NCBI GenBank assembly: GCA_903882875.1
Contig: CAIRYQ010000059.1
Coordinates: 1-64,000, forward strand
DNA length: 64,000 nucleotides
From: an uncultured Spartobacteria bacterium
GTDB taxonomy: Bacteria > Verrucomicrobiota > Verrucomicrobiia > Chthoniobacterales > Chthoniobacteraceae
Reading direction: 5' to 3'
The notes below the pieces were generated by a model. The model worked only from the letters and a program-made list of their open reading frames with translations, was not told the DNA's origin and made no database searches. A program made the position numbers and the translations under genes. Positions 21,739-26,840 of this stretch are shown piece after piece; within the stretch, counting starts at the first letter, position 1, and every line of letters begins with the position of its first letter.

Positions 21739-22572
21739 CTACCGCCCGCGCAACACCGGCCACAGCGGCGTCGCTTCGCGCAGGAACTCCATCTGCGGCT
21801 CCTCCCACGCCTCGGCGGACGGCACGCCCAGCAGGGTCTCATACGGCTTCGGCGTGTTCTTCTGCGCCATGATCTGGAAGTCGTTGTAGAAATATCCCGG
21901 ATTGTCCCGCAGGCGCAGCAGCACGCGCAAATCCAGCTCATCCACCGCACCCGTCGCCTCATCCTGCGGATGGCACACATACACCGCCACGGCCCCCTGA
22001 CGCTGCGTGCAGAAGATCCGGATCGCCTGCCTCAGCTTGGAAGGCACATCGTCCGGCTCCACCGGCACGATCCTCATGCGTCCGCCCGTCCCCCGCTCCG
22101 GCGGAGGCGGCGGCTGCAGCTCTGTGAATTCCCCCGCCACGAGCTTCGCCACGGCACGGGGTTCGAGCCGCATGCTTGCGCAGTTGTGCGCCGTCACCTT
22201 CACGTGAGTGCGCCCGTTGTTGAGGAAATGAAACAGCACCTTCGCGGGAATCTCGGCCATCGCCGGCGGCCCGTCCGCTGGCCACAGGTGGGAGCGGCGC
22301 TTGTCCTTTGCCGCGCGCAGGCTCGTGAACACCGCCGCGAAATCCCCCTCCTTGTCCCGATACGTGTTCCATGTGAACCCGTCGCGCACATCCATCACAT
22401 GCTCGCCCGCCAGCTCCGGGTGCGGCGGCACATACACCCACAGCCGCGCCCCCAGCAGCATCCGCATCAGCGGCCCAAACAGCGCCGGGTCGTCCTTCGC
22501 CAGCATCATCACCCGATCCAGCTCCTGCGGATCGGTCACCGGGCCTTCCTCGGGCGGGTCTTCGTCGCTCAT
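21739..22572 (-). CDS. SseB-family protein
   Basis: A 277-residue protein with the two SseB regions: the N-terminal one (LMRMLLGARLWVYVPP, then VFTSLRAAKD) and the C-terminal one (VPSKLRQAIRIFCTQR, AVAVYVCHPQD). SseB was named for enhanced serine sensitivity in E. coli; its molecular role is poorly known. In several bacteria it lies near secretion or nucleic-acid loci. Here it follows the EVE-HNH gene by 31 bases on the same strand, so it may be the fourth cistron of that operon. The N-terminus is acidic, with no signal or membrane segment. Confidence 0.75.
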   Translation of the reverse strand: MSDEDPPEEGPVTDPQELDRVMMLAKDDPALFGPLMRMLLGARLWVYVPPHPELAGEHVMDVRDGFTWNTYRDKEGDFAAVFTSLRAAKDKRRSHLWPADGPPAMAEIPAKVLFHFLNNGRTHVKVTAHNCASMRLEPRAVAKLVAGEFTELQPPPPPERGTGGRMRIVPVEPDDVPSKLRQAIRIFCTQRQGAVAVYVCHPQDEATGAVDELDLRVLLRLRDNPGYFYNDFQIMAQKNTPKPYETLLGVPSAEAWEEPQMEFLREATPLWPVLRGR

Positions 22573-22603
22573 AGGGATAAATGCTATCTGGTCCCTTGCT
22601 TCT

Positions 22604-23941
22604 CTACTCTTCGGCAGCCTTCTCCTGTGCGCGGATGGAGCGGAGTTCGGCGATCGAGCGCACCTCTCCTCGCTGTGCGTTCATGCCTCGATGAAGCATG
22701 GCATGGCAGTTAGGGCACACCGGTTTCATATCGCTTGCAGGAACATGGATGCTGCCATTCTCAGCGTCACTACTCGCCAGCGGGTGTTCATGATGCACAT
22801 GGATAAAGTCGCGTCCGATTTCCCCATACTCTTCGAGAAAGCTCATCTTGCAGACAACGCAGCGATATTTATGAACCTCCAGACAGAGAGCGCGATTCTT
22901 GGCATCGCGCTCCCGGCGCGTGCTCCAAGTTTCGATGAGTCGGCCTTCGAGACTGGATGCAGTGTCTTCGGCGAGTTCAGGTGAGGGCGAGGATAAAGTG
23001 GGTTGTGGAAGGGATGGGCTAAGAGTTGAATCCGACTTACTGGTGTCTTCATTGGACCGTCGATCCTCGTCCTCCAAACGTTCCACTGCTTGCCAGACGA
23101 TGTCATGAAAGCGGCTGTCCAGTTCAACGCCACTTCCCTGTGGCGCACGAAATGATTCCATTCCCGGAAGGGATTGGAGATCAAGTGGCTCATCGGGATC
23201 GAACACCCACTGCCAGAGAATATCGACATGCTTCCAGCCGTCCTGTCTGCCGTTACTGCGAATCCAACCCCATCCAACAATGCCACGCGGCGCATCACCA
23301 GTTCTGAGCATGATATAACGATCCCCGGCACACACTTTCTTAACTGAGTAACAACTCCATTGTTTATCAATCGGGATCAGTCCGTCGAGAATCTGCGAGC
23401 GCCATCCTGCAAAAGTTTCGACTGGCACCGGAACACCGGAATCGCCAATTGTAGCCTTCCGGTTTGGCTTCCACGTCAACACATAAGTTCGCGGTTCTTC
23501 AAAAATGAAGGATGGGGTCTCAATGATCTGATACGTCCGCTGATCGCTTTCAGACAATGGTTTCCCAGTCCTCTCACAGACAAGTGAGTCCACCACAGGC
23601 CATGATGGAATGTATCCGATATTTTCCAACCGCACATGAGTTCGTCGACCCTCAATGGTGATCGATCTCGCTACGCCCCACGCCATGACGCGGGATTGCT
23701 CGCTTGTCGAATCCACAAGAATCACAGGCAGGGACACATCATCGCCATGCAGTTCATTGAGCATCTGTTTTGCCCTTGTCCATGTGACATTCTCGGTGAA
23801 TTCGAGGTAGTCGTCCTCAATTGCTTGAACGATCTTCTCGCTGTCCAAGAAGGTGCAAACAGACAATTCGTGGATTTGCGGTGCTGCTGCTGGGTCTGAC
23901 ATACAAAGGTCGAAGGAGAGTCTGACTTTTATCTTGTTCAC
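22604..23941 (-). CDS. EVE-domain HNH endonuclease (modified-DNA restriction type)
   Basis: A 445-residue protein from a GTG start that overlaps the upstream stop (GTGA); an ATG at 23902 is the alternative. Residues about 200-290 look like an EVE/PUA-type base-reading domain (YIMLRTGDAPRGIVGWGWI, then DILWQWVFDP). An acidic linker follows. Residues about 350-430 form an HNH nuclease: CVVC, FIHVHHEHPLA, and DMKPVCPNCHAMLHRG with paired zinc cysteines and the catalytic His. The first 190 residues are a further, unassigned domain. EVE-HNH fusions are predicted to cut DNA with modified bases. The coupling to two small genes upstream is unusual. Confidence 0.8.
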   Translation of the reverse strand: MNKIKVRLSFDLCMSDPAAAPQIHELSVCTFLDSEKIVQAIEDDYLEFTENVTWTRAKQMLNELHGDDVSLPVILVDSTSEQSRVMAWGVARSITIEGRRTHVRLENIGYIPSWPVVDSLVCERTGKPLSESDQRTYQIIETPSFIFEEPRTYVLTWKPNRKATIGDSGVPVPVETFAGWRSQILDGLIPIDKQWSCYSVKKVCAGDRYIMLRTGDAPRGIVGWGWIRSNGRQDGWKHVDILWQWVFDPDEPLDLQSLPGMESFRAPQGSGVELDSRFHDIVWQAVERLEDEDRRSNEDTSKSDSTLSPSLPQPTLSSPSPELAEDTASSLEGRLIETWSTRRERDAKNRALCLEVHKYRCVVCKMSFLEEYGEIGRDFIHVHHEHPLASSDAENGSIHVPASDMKPVCPNCHAMLHRGMNAQRGEVRSIAELRSIRAQEKAAEE

Positions 23942-24186
23942 GCCGCCGATTGCAGCGCACGGACGCTCAGGACTTCCGCCGAAGTGAGCGGTTCGATTTG
24001 AGATTCGCGCACCGTCACGACGGCGATGGTTTCGCCCGTGGCGGTGAAGACTTCCAACGTGTAGCCGTGCTCCCGGCCGGGCAGGCCGGCGTGAGTTTCG
24101 ACGACGGTGGCGACATCGCCGCGCCGGAGGCGGTGCGCAGGAAGATCGGCGGCGAGGGCGACGCGGGTGTAGGGTTCGTATTTCAT
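23938..24186 (-). CDS. DUF4926 protein, likely antidote or cofactor of its neighbours
   Basis: An 82-residue small beta-rich protein matching DUF4926 (PF16277-type): VALAADLPAHRLRRGDVATVVE, given here only as the segments LPAHRLRRGDVATVVE and ETIAVVTVRESQIEPL. Domains of this kind look like small SH3-like barrels. It overlaps both neighbours by four bases, so all three proteins are translated together. DUF4926 genes are often found beside DUF6883 genes, an arrangement resembling toxin-antitoxin pairs. That role is inferred and not shown for this protein. Confidence 0.75.
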   Translation of the reverse strand: MKYEPYTRVALAADLPAHRLRRGDVATVVETHAGLPGREHGYTLEVFTATGETIAVVTVRESQIEPLTSAEVLSVRALQSAA

Positions 24187-24512
24187 CGGCGGGCTGGGTA
24201 GAGGGTGATGAATTTGGTTTGCTGGCTGGCGTCTTCGATCATCCAGATGGTCACGACTTCCAGCTCTTGACTATTCGGGCCCCGAAGCGGGCCGCGGATG
24301 GCATACTTGGGGCCATATTCGCTGAATTCAAGAAATTCCGCATCAAGCGGAAGCAACTGTGTTTGGATGTCATGCCGGAGCTGTTCGGGATTTTCCAGCG
24401 TGTATCCCGCTCGGGCGAGGAAAGCGGATTTGTCGTCCTCGGGGCGCGGACGGAGAAGATAGCCTGCGATCTTCTCACTGGCGACGAGTGCGAGCGCGGA
24501 CAGTTTCATCAC
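24183..24512 (-). CDS. DUF6883-like protein, first gene of the EVE-HNH operon
   Basis: A 109-residue protein resembling DUF6883: an opening segment ending KIAGYLL, then KSAFLARAGYTLENPEQL, KYAIRGPLRG, and a tail VVTIWMIEDA, then FITLYPARR. The last strand pattern is typical of the family. An ATG at 24509 is an equal start. It heads a leftward operon and overlaps DUF4926 by ATGA. Related proteins are sometimes fused to polymorphic-toxin scaffolds, so a toxic activity is conceivable, but no catalytic residues can be named. Confidence 0.65.
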   Translation of the reverse strand: MMKLSALALVASEKIAGYLLRPRPEDDKSAFLARAGYTLENPEQLRHDIQTQLLPLDAEFLEFSEYGPKYAIRGPLRGPNSQELEVVTIWMIEDASQQTKFITLYPARR

Positions 24513-24775: not shown

Positions 24776-25546
24776 TCACATCGCCCGGCACTGCACCGTG
24801 TTGCTCCAGTCGGAGTGCTGGCCTTTGGCGAAGTGGATGCGGGCTTGGACGGCGTAGAGGGTGCCGGGGATGAGGTTGTTCAGGGCGAGGCCGCGGGCGC
24901 TCTTCGAGAATTCGCCGTTGACCCAGGGGCCCTGGGTGCCGTCGGGGTTGATGACGGCGCAGCGGGCCTCGTAGCCTGCGGCGTTTTTGACGGGGTCCAC
25001 CTTTGGGAGGAGCTGGCCGGCGAGGCCGTGTTTCACGTCGCTGAGGGCGGGGGCGGCGAGGGCGGCGAAGGTGTTGCCGGCCTTGGTGGATTTGAAGCCG
25101 CTGCTGAGCAGGAGGGTGAGGTTGTTGCCGTGCTTGCCGTCCACATAGGCGGCGAGCTGGCGGAGCAGGGCGATGAGGGCGGTGCGCTTGTCATTCTTGT
25201 CGGCGGTGTCGGCGGGGCCGCCCTGCTTGGCGGCGATGATGGAGGCGCTGAAGGCGGTGTGCGCGGTGTCGAGGTCGGCCTTGGAAACGGGCGGGACGGT
25301 GCCGGGCGGGTTGTTGTAGGCGGCCTGGGCGTAGAGACCGTTGCTGACTTCGCCGGCGAGGTCTTCGAGGTCATGGTCTTTCATGCCGTCGAAGCTGATG
25401 ATGACGTGGATGATGGGCATACGCTTGGTGGTGCTTGTGGTTATGGTTTCAGGGATGTTGCCGTCCCAAGTCAGGCCCGGGGTATCGAAGCGCAATGGAT
25501 TGCCCTGCGAGTCCTTGCCGTCCCAGGAGGCGTTTGGTGGTGCCAT
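24776..25546 (-). CDS. fibronectin type III-like protein, unknown role
   Basis: A 256-residue protein with no signal peptide. The first 60 residues are a beta-rich lead (ASWDGKDSQGNPLRFDTP). The middle is helical and alanine-rich (about 60-165). The end (about 175-256) reads like a fibronectin type III module: YEARCAVINPDGTQGPW, LIPGTLYAVQARIHFAKG and HSDWSNTVQC. Similar proteins recur in Verrucomicrobia in several copies, but their job is unknown. A hairpin follows its stop. Upstream lies a stretch of tandem repeats and long palindromes, so the gene is in a mobile neighbourhood. Confidence 0.6.
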   Translation of the reverse strand: MAPPNASWDGKDSQGNPLRFDTPGLTWDGNIPETITTSTTKRMPIIHVIISFDGMKDHDLEDLAGEVSNGLYAQAAYNNPPGTVPPVSKADLDTAHTAFSASIIAAKQGGPADTADKNDKRTALIALLRQLAAYVDGKHGNNLTLLLSSGFKSTKAGNTFAALAAPALSDVKHGLAGQLLPKVDPVKNAAGYEARCAVINPDGTQGPWVNGEFSKSARGLALNNLIPGTLYAVQARIHFAKGQHSDWSNTVQCRAM

Positions 25547-26195
25547 GGTGGGCTGTGGTTTGTGGTTTTGGGTTTGGTGTGAAGTGGCGCGGGTGCGCCG
25601 AAATGGGTGCGTGGGCGGGCGGATGGCAAAAGGCAGATTCTGAAGGCAGGAAGGCGGGAAAGTTCCGCTTGCGGGCCTCTTTCCTGATTTCCTGCTTTCC
25701 TCATTGAGCTCTTCCTCCGATTGCCATCCATCCGGACAGGCAGGGCGAAAACGGGCATTTTTCCTGCAAAACAGGGCTCTTCCTCGTTTTCCTTCATTTG
25801 AGGACCGGCATTTTCGATCAAAAATGCGGCATCTTTAATCGAAGATGTCGCATCTTTGATCGAGAATGCGGCATCGCTGATCGGAGATGGAGCGCCTGCG
25901 GCGGTGTCCGCGAGGGGTTTGGCGAACGGTGCGGGGACCTCGGCCGACGACACCGGGCCGCCTGCCGGGGCTGGGCGGCGGATGCCGGGATGTGGTGTGG
26001 GGTTCGTTCGCATGAGGGGCGGATTGGGGGTGACATCATTGCTTTACAAATTCTCCGGGCGGTTGTGTCAGGGTTTGTAAAAAAATCTTTGCGGAAATGC
26101 CGTCCCGTGGCATTTCCCGCCGCCCTTTCCTGGGCGCAGGCTCGTTCATCGCATGGTTCCGGTGGTGGTCGCCGGGCCCGGCCACGGGTCAGGGC
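25547..26195. other. intergenic region with tandem repeats, no supported gene
   Basis: A minus-strand open frame runs 25471-26013 but has a proline- and arginine-rich, shifting composition and overlaps the fibronectin-like gene out of frame, so I do not call it. The repeat at 25806-25894 is listed separately. Nothing else is recognisable before the first long palindrome begins at 26196. Confidence 0.4.
25806..25894. repeat. 21-base tandem repeat, about four units
   Basis: Units starting at about 25823, 25844 and 25865 share the pattern ATGCGGCATCTTTGATCGA with a few changes, flanked by partial units. The 21-base period equals seven codons. In the minus-strand frame it reads a heptad (SIKDAAF-like). 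If translated it would make a short amphipathic helix; if not, it is a simple slippage repeat. Confidence 0.7.
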
Positions 26196-26517
26196 CTGTC
26201 ATGCACTTTGGCAAAGGCGGCAGTGGATCGCGGGCCAACGGCCCTGGACAAGCCAGCCCAGGGCAAGCGAGGAACGAGCGCCGCCCTGGGTATTGTATGC
26301 AGGAACGGACAAAGCCCTGAAGGGGCGGCACATCTTTGCCGCGCAGGTGGCCACCTTTGCCCCAAGGGCGGCACACCTTGTCACGCCCTTTCAGGGCTTT
26401 GTTGGTTTCCTCCCCCTATCCCAGGGCGGCGTCCGCGAAAGACGCGGACTTGCCCTGGGCTGGCTTGTGCAGGGCCTTTGGCCCGCTGCTCGCCGCCTCT
26501 GCCAAAGTGCATGACAG
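26196..26517. repeat. 322-base imperfect palindrome (element A)
   Basis: Outer arms of 25 bases (26196-26220 and 26493-26517) match inverted with one mismatch. The next arms (26230-26267 and 26449-26486, 38 bases) match with two mismatches. Further inside, GCCGCCCTGGGTA pairs with TATCCCAGGGCGGC, and an AAAGCCCTGAA core pairs with TTCAGGGCTTT. The whole element can fold into one long hairpin. Its core is shared with the palindrome at 63549-63686, so this is a dispersed family of non-coding REP-like elements. No transposase lies inside. Confidence 0.85.
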
Positions 26518-26534
26518 TCCCAGAAAACCCTGCT

Positions 26535-26766
26535 TATCCGGTTGCTTGACACAGACAGGCTCGGCGAGGGCTTCGAGAATAGCCCAGCACTTCAGTGCTG
26601 GGTACAAGATGGTGAAAACGAGCAAAGTCCCGCAAGGGACGGCAGAACGCTCCTTCCGTCCCTGCCGGGACTTTGTTTTTCTGGAACCTCCGGTTCCCAG
26701 CGCTGAAGCGCTGGGCTATTTTCACGGCGTTCCCTTTCACCACGCGCTGTGTCAGGCAACCGGATA
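26535..26766. repeat. 232-base imperfect palindrome (element B)
   Basis: Outer arms 26535-26554 and 26747-26766 match inverted with one mismatch in 20. Inner arms contain AATAGCCCAGC facing GCTGGGCTATT, and AAAGTCCCGCAAGGGACGG facing a near-complement around 26658-26676. It lies 17 bases after element A, is built on the same plan, but has a different sequence. It ends about 110 bases before the sigma-factor start. Confidence 0.85.
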
Positions 26767-26840
26767 GGCATGCAGAAAACCAGCAGTGAGTCACTTGCAA
26801 CTCACATCAGGCAGCCGGCAACCCGCCCGCAACTGCCTGA

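What the first reader, a model, noticed from the sequence alone, without database searches (positions are those of the whole stretch)
21739..24512. DUF6883-DUF4926-EVE/HNH operon joined by 4-base overlaps, a candidate defence system
Sequence: three minus-strand genes are linked by ATGA (24183-24186) and GTGA (23938-23941) overlaps, and SseB follows 31 bases later. Known: EVE-HNH proteins are predicted modified-DNA restriction enzymes, and DUF6883 and DUF4926 often occur as neighbours in an arrangement resembling toxin-immunity pairs. Inference: here the pair seems translationally coupled to the nuclease, which would make a composite anti-phage or anti-plasmid unit in which a small protein may control the nuclease. 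The first 190 residues of the nuclease are an additional unassigned domain. I do not know of a described system with this order.
Basis: partly seen in the sequence, partly recalled or inferred. Interest (0 to 1): 0.75.

Follow-up and report, generated by a model that had tools for sequence, protein, structure and literature searches.

The report
Toxin–immunity pair beside a restriction nuclease
Two small genes of unknown function (DUF6883 and DUF4926) look like a portable RNA-cutting toxin with its antidote, and the gene after them, a predicted modified-DNA-cutting enzyme, sits next to them only in this genome, so the three are probably neighbours rather than one new defence machine.

Summary
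In detail: DUF6883 (24183-24509), DUF4926 (23938-24186) and a 445-aa HNH protein (22604-23941) lie on the minus strand, joined by ATGA and GTGA overlaps; SseB follows after 31 bases. The composite-defence reading is not supported. DUF6883-DUF4926 is a widespread, self-contained two-gene module: 52 of 73 loci examined hold both genes near-complete, often with the same ATGA overlap. No other pair locus has an EVE-HNH gene beside it, and none of 64 HNH/EVE-HNH loci except this one carries the pair. The nuclease gene has GC3 0.55, against 0.77-0.89 in most neighbouring genes, and its GTG start is only the first possible start. A confident DUF6883 model (pLDDT 94) best matches the BECR-fold tRNase CdiA-CT of Klebsiella 342 (6CP9) and C-termini of phage minor capsid proteins; its conserved K13, Y17, K27 and S/T102 parallel that toxin's active site. 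DUF6883 also ends a phage-type polyvalent protein followed by three DUF4926 genes, and broken toxins beside intact DUF4926 recur. Best reading: an RNase toxin-immunity module followed by a separately acquired EVE-HNH type IV restriction-like enzyme with an orphan N-terminal region (residues 1 to ~147). The toxin and immunity assignments are new in the literature searched.

The parts
24183..24509 (-). DUF6883 gene, 108 aa; predicted BECR-fold RNase toxin
   Evidence: Pfam PF21814 E 1.1e-18; AlphaFold2 pLDDT 94 from a 28-sequence alignment; Foldseek best PDB hit 6cp9; conserved K13, Y17, K27, S/T102
24183..24186 (-). ATGA overlap DUF6883 stop / DUF4926 start
   Evidence: sequence; same 4-base overlap in 18 of 39 pair loci
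23938..24186 (-). DUF4926 gene, 82 aa; predicted immunity protein / antitoxin
   Evidence: Pfam PF16277 E 4.1e-15; constant partner of DUF6883
23938..23941 (-). GTGA overlap DUF4926 stop / first possible start of the HNH protein
   Evidence: sequence; start uncertain; seen only here
22604..23941 (-). 445-aa EVE-HNH protein, predicted modification-dependent (type IV) endonuclease
   Evidence: matches to EVE-HNH relatives; GC3 0.547
23501..23941 (-). orphan N-terminal region of that protein, residues 1-147
   Evidence: no relative in genome contigs, viral contigs, plasmids, 388 phylum genomes or 57 near relatives
23045..23500 (-). EVE-like (PUA-superfamily) domain, about residues 148-299
   Evidence: family profile E 1.1e-38 at residues 152-299 (the profile includes this sequence); family members match Pfam EVE at up to 1e-4 and the EVE structures 2eve and 2g2x weakly
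22676..22951 (-). HNH nuclease domain, about residues 331-422, with CxxC / HVHH / CPNCH motifs
   Evidence: blastp to HNH relatives; EcoKMcrA 6ghc hit E 0.006 alone, 5.4e-6 as family profile; invariant columns
21739..22572 (-). SseB N-terminal-domain gene, 31 bases downstream; not considered part of the module
   Evidence: Pfam PF07179 E 4.5e-6; GC3 0.86

Best explanation
Two independent units stand side by side on one strand. (1) DUF6883-DUF4926 is a two-gene toxin-immunity (toxin-antitoxin-like) module. DUF6883 is a small BECR-fold, metal-independent ribonuclease toxin, most likely cutting tRNA or another translation RNA, with an active site built from a helix Lys-x3-Tyr pair, a second-helix Lys and a last-strand Thr/Ser. 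DUF4926, translated from an overlapping start, binds and blocks it. (2) The following gene encodes an EVE-HNH protein: the EVE domain would flip and read a modified base in foreign DNA and the HNH domain would cut, as in VcaM4I. It was probably acquired separately behind the pair and may be co-transcribed, but nothing shows that DUF6883 or DUF4926 acts on it. Shown here: gene order, recurrence of the pair, predicted fold and residue pattern, lack of recurrence of the trio, base-composition difference. Inferred: RNase activity, its target, neutralisation by DUF4926, modified-DNA cleavage.
For: Pair recurs in Verrucomicrobia, cyanobacterial plasmids and chromosomes, Nitrosococcus and Methylobacterium; 52 of 73 loci hold both genes near-complete (some places were fetched twice). 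ATGA overlap in 18 of 39; fused in one ORF in L144. DUF6883 model pLDDT 94; the four best PDB matches are 6cp9 chains (E 1.4e-3 to 4.7e-3, prob 1.0, TM up to 0.67), a BECR tRNase toxin complex whose listed active-site residues are K157, Y160, H170, R252, T255; the related EC3006 toxin lists K204, Y208, H256, R260, T330 (PMC9086364); compare K13, Y17, K27, S/T102 here. The best viral match is the C-terminal type domain of a phage minor capsid protein (TM 0.87, E 1.4e-8). L042: LPD3 polyvalent protein ending in DUF6883, followed by three DUF4926 genes. Decay is asymmetric: toxin broken or absent with DUF4926 intact in about a dozen loci; the reverse clearly only in L036. Neighbouring toxin-antitoxin genes: PIN + Phd/YefM and a sub-threshold MqsA-like match, RelE/ParE, BrnTA. 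The trio is seen only here; nuclease GC3 0.547.
Against: The 6cp9 match is moderate (E just above 1e-3, rmsd 3.7 for the best-superposed chain), and K27 replaces the His of the Kp342 toxin. The DUF6883 gene itself is lower in GC than most neighbours (GC3 0.65), so base composition does not cleanly separate the two units. The 4-base GTGA junction and short SseB gap fit one transcript. DUF4926 was not modelled, and the complex was not predicted. One locus (L036) has an intact DUF6883 without a detectable DUF4926.
Confidence: 0.77

Rival explanations
1. Composite anti-phage unit: the DUF6883-DUF4926 pair is a control or suicide module for the EVE-HNH nuclease, so that inhibition or loss of the nuclease frees the RNase toxin (as toxin-antitoxin pairs guard some restriction loci).
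For: Same strand, 4-base junction. In Anabaena the pair sits between hsdS and hsdR of a type I restriction locus, so pairing with restriction genes does happen.
Against: No second trio near the pair loci or the 64 HNH/EVE-HNH loci; no convincing defence-family match in ten neighbouring proteins; GC3 break; downstream genes of the pair elsewhere are unrelated.
Confidence: 0.09
2. DUF6883-DUF4926 is a housekeeping pair, such as an RNA-processing factor and its partner, and not a toxin-immunity module.
For: No toxicity data exist; the genes are small, and one isolated DUF6883 (L036) was found.
Against: Patchy distribution (12 of 388 phylum genomes), plasmid carriage, fusion to a phage-type polyvalent protein with triplicate DUF4926, BECR fold, frequent decay of DUF6883 but not DUF4926.
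Confidence: 0.08
3. The EVE-like protein is not a modified-DNA restriction enzyme but a homing-type or other HNH nuclease that merely landed there.
For: The window protein alone does not reach Pfam EVE; the N-terminal 147 residues are orphan.
Against: Consistent EVE + HNH architecture in relatives; McrA-type HNH.
Confidence: 0.12

Closest known systems
CdiA-CT/CdiI of Klebsiella pneumoniae 342 (PDB 6CP9), BECR tRNase toxin and immunity protein
   Same: helices followed by four strands; Lys-Tyr pair in a helix and Thr near the last strand; toxin gene followed by immunity gene
   Different: DUF6883 is usually a stand-alone 108-115 aa protein without CdiA delivery parts; Lys instead of His in the second helix; no significant sequence match to PDB toxins
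PBECR / MuF phage toxins and polyvalent proteins (PMC5512222, PMC5576092)
   Same: DUF6883 occurs at the C-terminus of an LPD3 protein (L042) and structurally matches phage minor capsid proteins (TM 0.87)
   Different: most DUF6883 genes are free-standing bacterial two-gene modules; no PBECR family was among the Pfam hits
Type II toxin-antitoxin modules (RelE/ParE superfamily, BrnTA)
   Same: two small overlapping genes, BECR fold toxin, plasmid carriage, orphan antitoxins, neighbouring toxin-antitoxin loci
   Different: no DNA-binding domain was recognised in DUF4926, so autoregulation is not indicated
VcaM4I-type EVE-HNH restriction endonucleases (PMC7897488)
   Same: EVE-like domain, linker, HNH domain order; HNH zinc and catalytic motif kept
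   Different: extra orphan N-terminal region of about 147 residues; EVE match only through the family profile; no sequence hit to a VcaM4I structure was listed

Membership tests
BECR-fold RNase toxin (DUF6883) | core of N-terminal helix or helices followed by a four- or five-strand sheet | tested here: met
   model H-H-H-E-E-E-E, pLDDT 94; 6cp9 prob 1.0, TM up to 0.67
BECR-fold RNase toxin (DUF6883) | alcoholic residue (S/T) in the last core strand | tested here: met
   T102, or S in L039/L040; only the frameshifted L090 row lacks the column; feature as described in PMC5512222
BECR-fold RNase toxin (DUF6883) | His or other basic catalytic residue in the N-terminal helix | tested here: met
   K13, Y17 and K27 invariant; Kp342 uses K157/Y160/H170; equivalence rests on order and spacing, not on superposed coordinates
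BECR-fold RNase toxin (DUF6883) | ribonuclease activity and toxicity | not testable with these tools
   needs expression and RNA assay
toxin-immunity / toxin-antitoxin module | conserved adjacency of a toxin gene and a small partner gene | tested here: met
   52 of 73 loci with both near-complete; 18 of 39 with the ATGA overlap; confirmed starting from DUF4926
toxin-immunity / toxin-antitoxin module | partner survives alone more often than the toxin | tested here: met
   toxin broken or absent with DUF4926 detectable in L065, L091, L094, L096, L097, L099, L132, L133, L134, L149, L151, L157; opposite clearly only in L036; modest numbers, locus boundaries limited
toxin-immunity / toxin-antitoxin module | partner neutralises toxin by binding | not testable with these tools
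EVE-HNH type IV restriction endonuclease | EVE domain | tested here: inconclusive
   window protein itself no Pfam EVE match; 4 of 14 family members match (best 1e-4), 2eve and 2g2x at E 0.13 and 0.59
EVE-HNH type IV restriction endonuclease | intact HNH beta-beta-alpha-metal motif | tested here: met
   CxxC, HVHH and CPNCH columns kept in A5; 6ghc profile E 5.4e-6
EVE-HNH type IV restriction endonuclease | cleaves modified but not unmodified DNA | not testable with these tools
   needs biochemistry
composite DUF6883-DUF4926-nuclease defence system | recurrent gene order in unrelated genomes | tested here: not met
   no second case
composite DUF6883-DUF4926-nuclease defence system | location in a defence island | tested here: not met
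   no convincing PADLOC match in ten neighbouring proteins (one Csm6 match at E 0.0057 judged spurious); not all window genes were scanned

The most novel reading that the evidence does not exclude
The BECR toxin-immunity pair guards the EVE-HNH enzyme: the pair is coupled in translation to the nuclease, and an invader that blocks or evades the nuclease triggers the RNase, giving a two-layer restriction plus abortive-infection locus assembled here.
Probability: 0.07. Interest if true: 0.7.

Novelty: new member of a known kind. Interest (0 to 1): 0.4.

Why it matters
Two Pfam families of unknown function, spread over Verrucomicrobia, cyanobacteria and proteobacteria, gain a testable function (BECR ribonuclease toxin and its immunity protein); in the open literature searched, DUF6883 is not mentioned at all and DUF4926 once in passing. 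It adds plasmid- and phage-linked toxin modules to annotation and gives named candidate catalytic residues to mutate. It also removes a false lead for a composite defence system. The orphan N-terminal region of the EVE-HNH protein remains open.

Tried and rejected
Single-sequence AlphaFold2 of the 445-aa protein gave pLDDT 36 and was discarded. Searches for its N-terminal region in genome contigs, viral contigs, plasmids, the phylum and near relatives found no relative; the idea that it is a second EVE-like domain is not supported (hhalign probability 0.2; blastp E 0.28). No phage record encodes a close DUF6883 relative by tblastn. No clean empty site was found: the flanking genes of near relatives lie on separate contigs with other neighbours. 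Promoter and terminator scans gave no more than chance. A PADLOC Csm6 match to 24776-25546 (E 0.0057) was judged spurious.

Full report
Observation. The three minus-strand genes, the ATGA (24183-24186) and GTGA (23938-23941) junctions and the 31-base gap to SseB are all present. Pfam gives DUF6883 E 1.1e-18, DUF4926 E 4.1e-15, SseB E 4.5e-6 and a sub-threshold HNH match for the 445-aa protein; PADLOC and NCBIfam put its HNH part near type IV and phosphorothioate-dependent enzymes, weakly. The start of the 445-aa protein is uncertain: the frame is open for 99 codons upstream with no earlier ATG, GTG or TTG, so the GTG is merely the first choice.

What the nuclease is. Its C-terminal 110 residues match many HNH proteins of the phylum, most at 25-49% identity, and the HNH domain of EcoKMcrA (E 0.006 alone; 5.4e-6 as a family profile). 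Relatives in the same genus and in other families match from residue 152 or 191 onward and share the WNPK / WSC / GIVASG pattern. Members of this family match Pfam EVE (best 1e-4) and the EVE structures 2eve and 2g2x weakly. I call it EVE-HNH, by family profile rather than by direct match. By analogy to VcaM4I (PMC7897488) it should read modified cytosine through the EVE domain and cut through HNH. Residues 1 to about 147 have no relative anywhere searched.

What the pair is. DUF6883 occurs in 12 of 388 genomes of the phylum and in cyanobacterial and other plasmids; DUF4926 was sought separately. Of 73 loci examined, 52 hold both genes near-complete, some places being counted twice. In 18 of 39 loci, including this one, the two overlap by exactly ATGA; in L144 they form one ORF. 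The order is reversed in Methylobacterium. A model from 28 sequences has pLDDT 94 and three helices followed by four strands. The four best solved matches are 6cp9 chains, a CdiA-CT/CdiI complex; PMC9086364 describes its toxin as a BECR tRNase with helices followed by four strands and active-site residues K157, Y160, H170, R252 and T255. That the matched chains are the toxin and not the nearly all-beta immunity protein is inferred from the fold. DUF6883 keeps K13, Y17, K27 and T/S102, in the same order and similar spacing. The best viral structure match is a phage minor capsid protein (TM 0.87). In L042 DUF6883 ends a protein with the polyvalent-protein domain LPD3 and is followed by three DUF4926 genes, an arrangement typical of toxin and immunity arrays. 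Where the module decays, DUF6883 is broken or missing while DUF4926 persists in about a dozen loci; the opposite was clear only in L036. Several loci lie beside other toxin-antitoxin genes.

Are the three one system? Flanks of DUF6883 loci hold no EVE or HNH gene except in the window. Sixty-four HNH or EVE-HNH loci hold no DUF6883 or DUF4926 except copies of the window. DUF4926 loci from 169 genomes of the class hold none except the window, apart from a marginal opposite-strand HNH match in L149. Flanks were about 1.5 to 6 kb, so a more distant link is not excluded. The nuclease gene has GC 0.53 and GC3 0.55; DUF4926 has GC3 0.77, SseB 0.86 and DUF6883 0.65. Ten neighbouring proteins gave no convincing defence match. 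In near relatives the flanking kinase and S1/P1-nuclease genes are kept but adjoin other genes, so 21.7-27.6 kb looks like a variable region. The one hint for a link is Anabaena, where the pair sits between hsdS and hsdR; that shows toxin modules can enter restriction loci, not that they control them.

Verdict. Best read as a BECR ribonuclease toxin-immunity module followed by a separately acquired EVE-HNH enzyme, each a member of a known kind. The new part is the functional assignment of DUF6883 and DUF4926, which the searched literature does not contain. Activity, target, neutralisation and modified-DNA cleavage are inferred and need experiments.

Noticed in passing
window 26189-26524 and 26531-26770: Two adjacent palindromic elements (336 and 240 bases) with terminal inverted repeats of 33 nt (91%) and 24 nt (92%); related copies lie on many contigs of the same genome and in the same genus, like miniature inverted-repeat elements.
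   Followed up: partly
L042 796-3126 (same place as L150, L158): LPD3 polyvalent protein ending in DUF6883, followed by three tandem, non-identical DUF4926 genes.
   Followed up: yes
L144 1444-2040: DUF6883 and DUF4926 fused in a single 198-aa ORF.
   Followed up: partly
L064 2714-7982: In Anabaena cylindrica plasmid pANACY.03 the DUF6883-DUF4926 pair lies between hsdS and hsdR of a type I restriction locus.
   Followed up: no
L065 1-3318: In Stanieria a DUF4926 gene without DUF6883 directly follows a caspase-family protein gene, perhaps another partner.
   Followed up: no
window 25808-25889: Three tandem 21-base repeats (GCATCTTTGATCGA...).
   Followed up: no
window 23501-23941: Orphan N-terminal region (residues 1-147) of the EVE-HNH protein with no relative in any collection searched.
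   Followed up: partly
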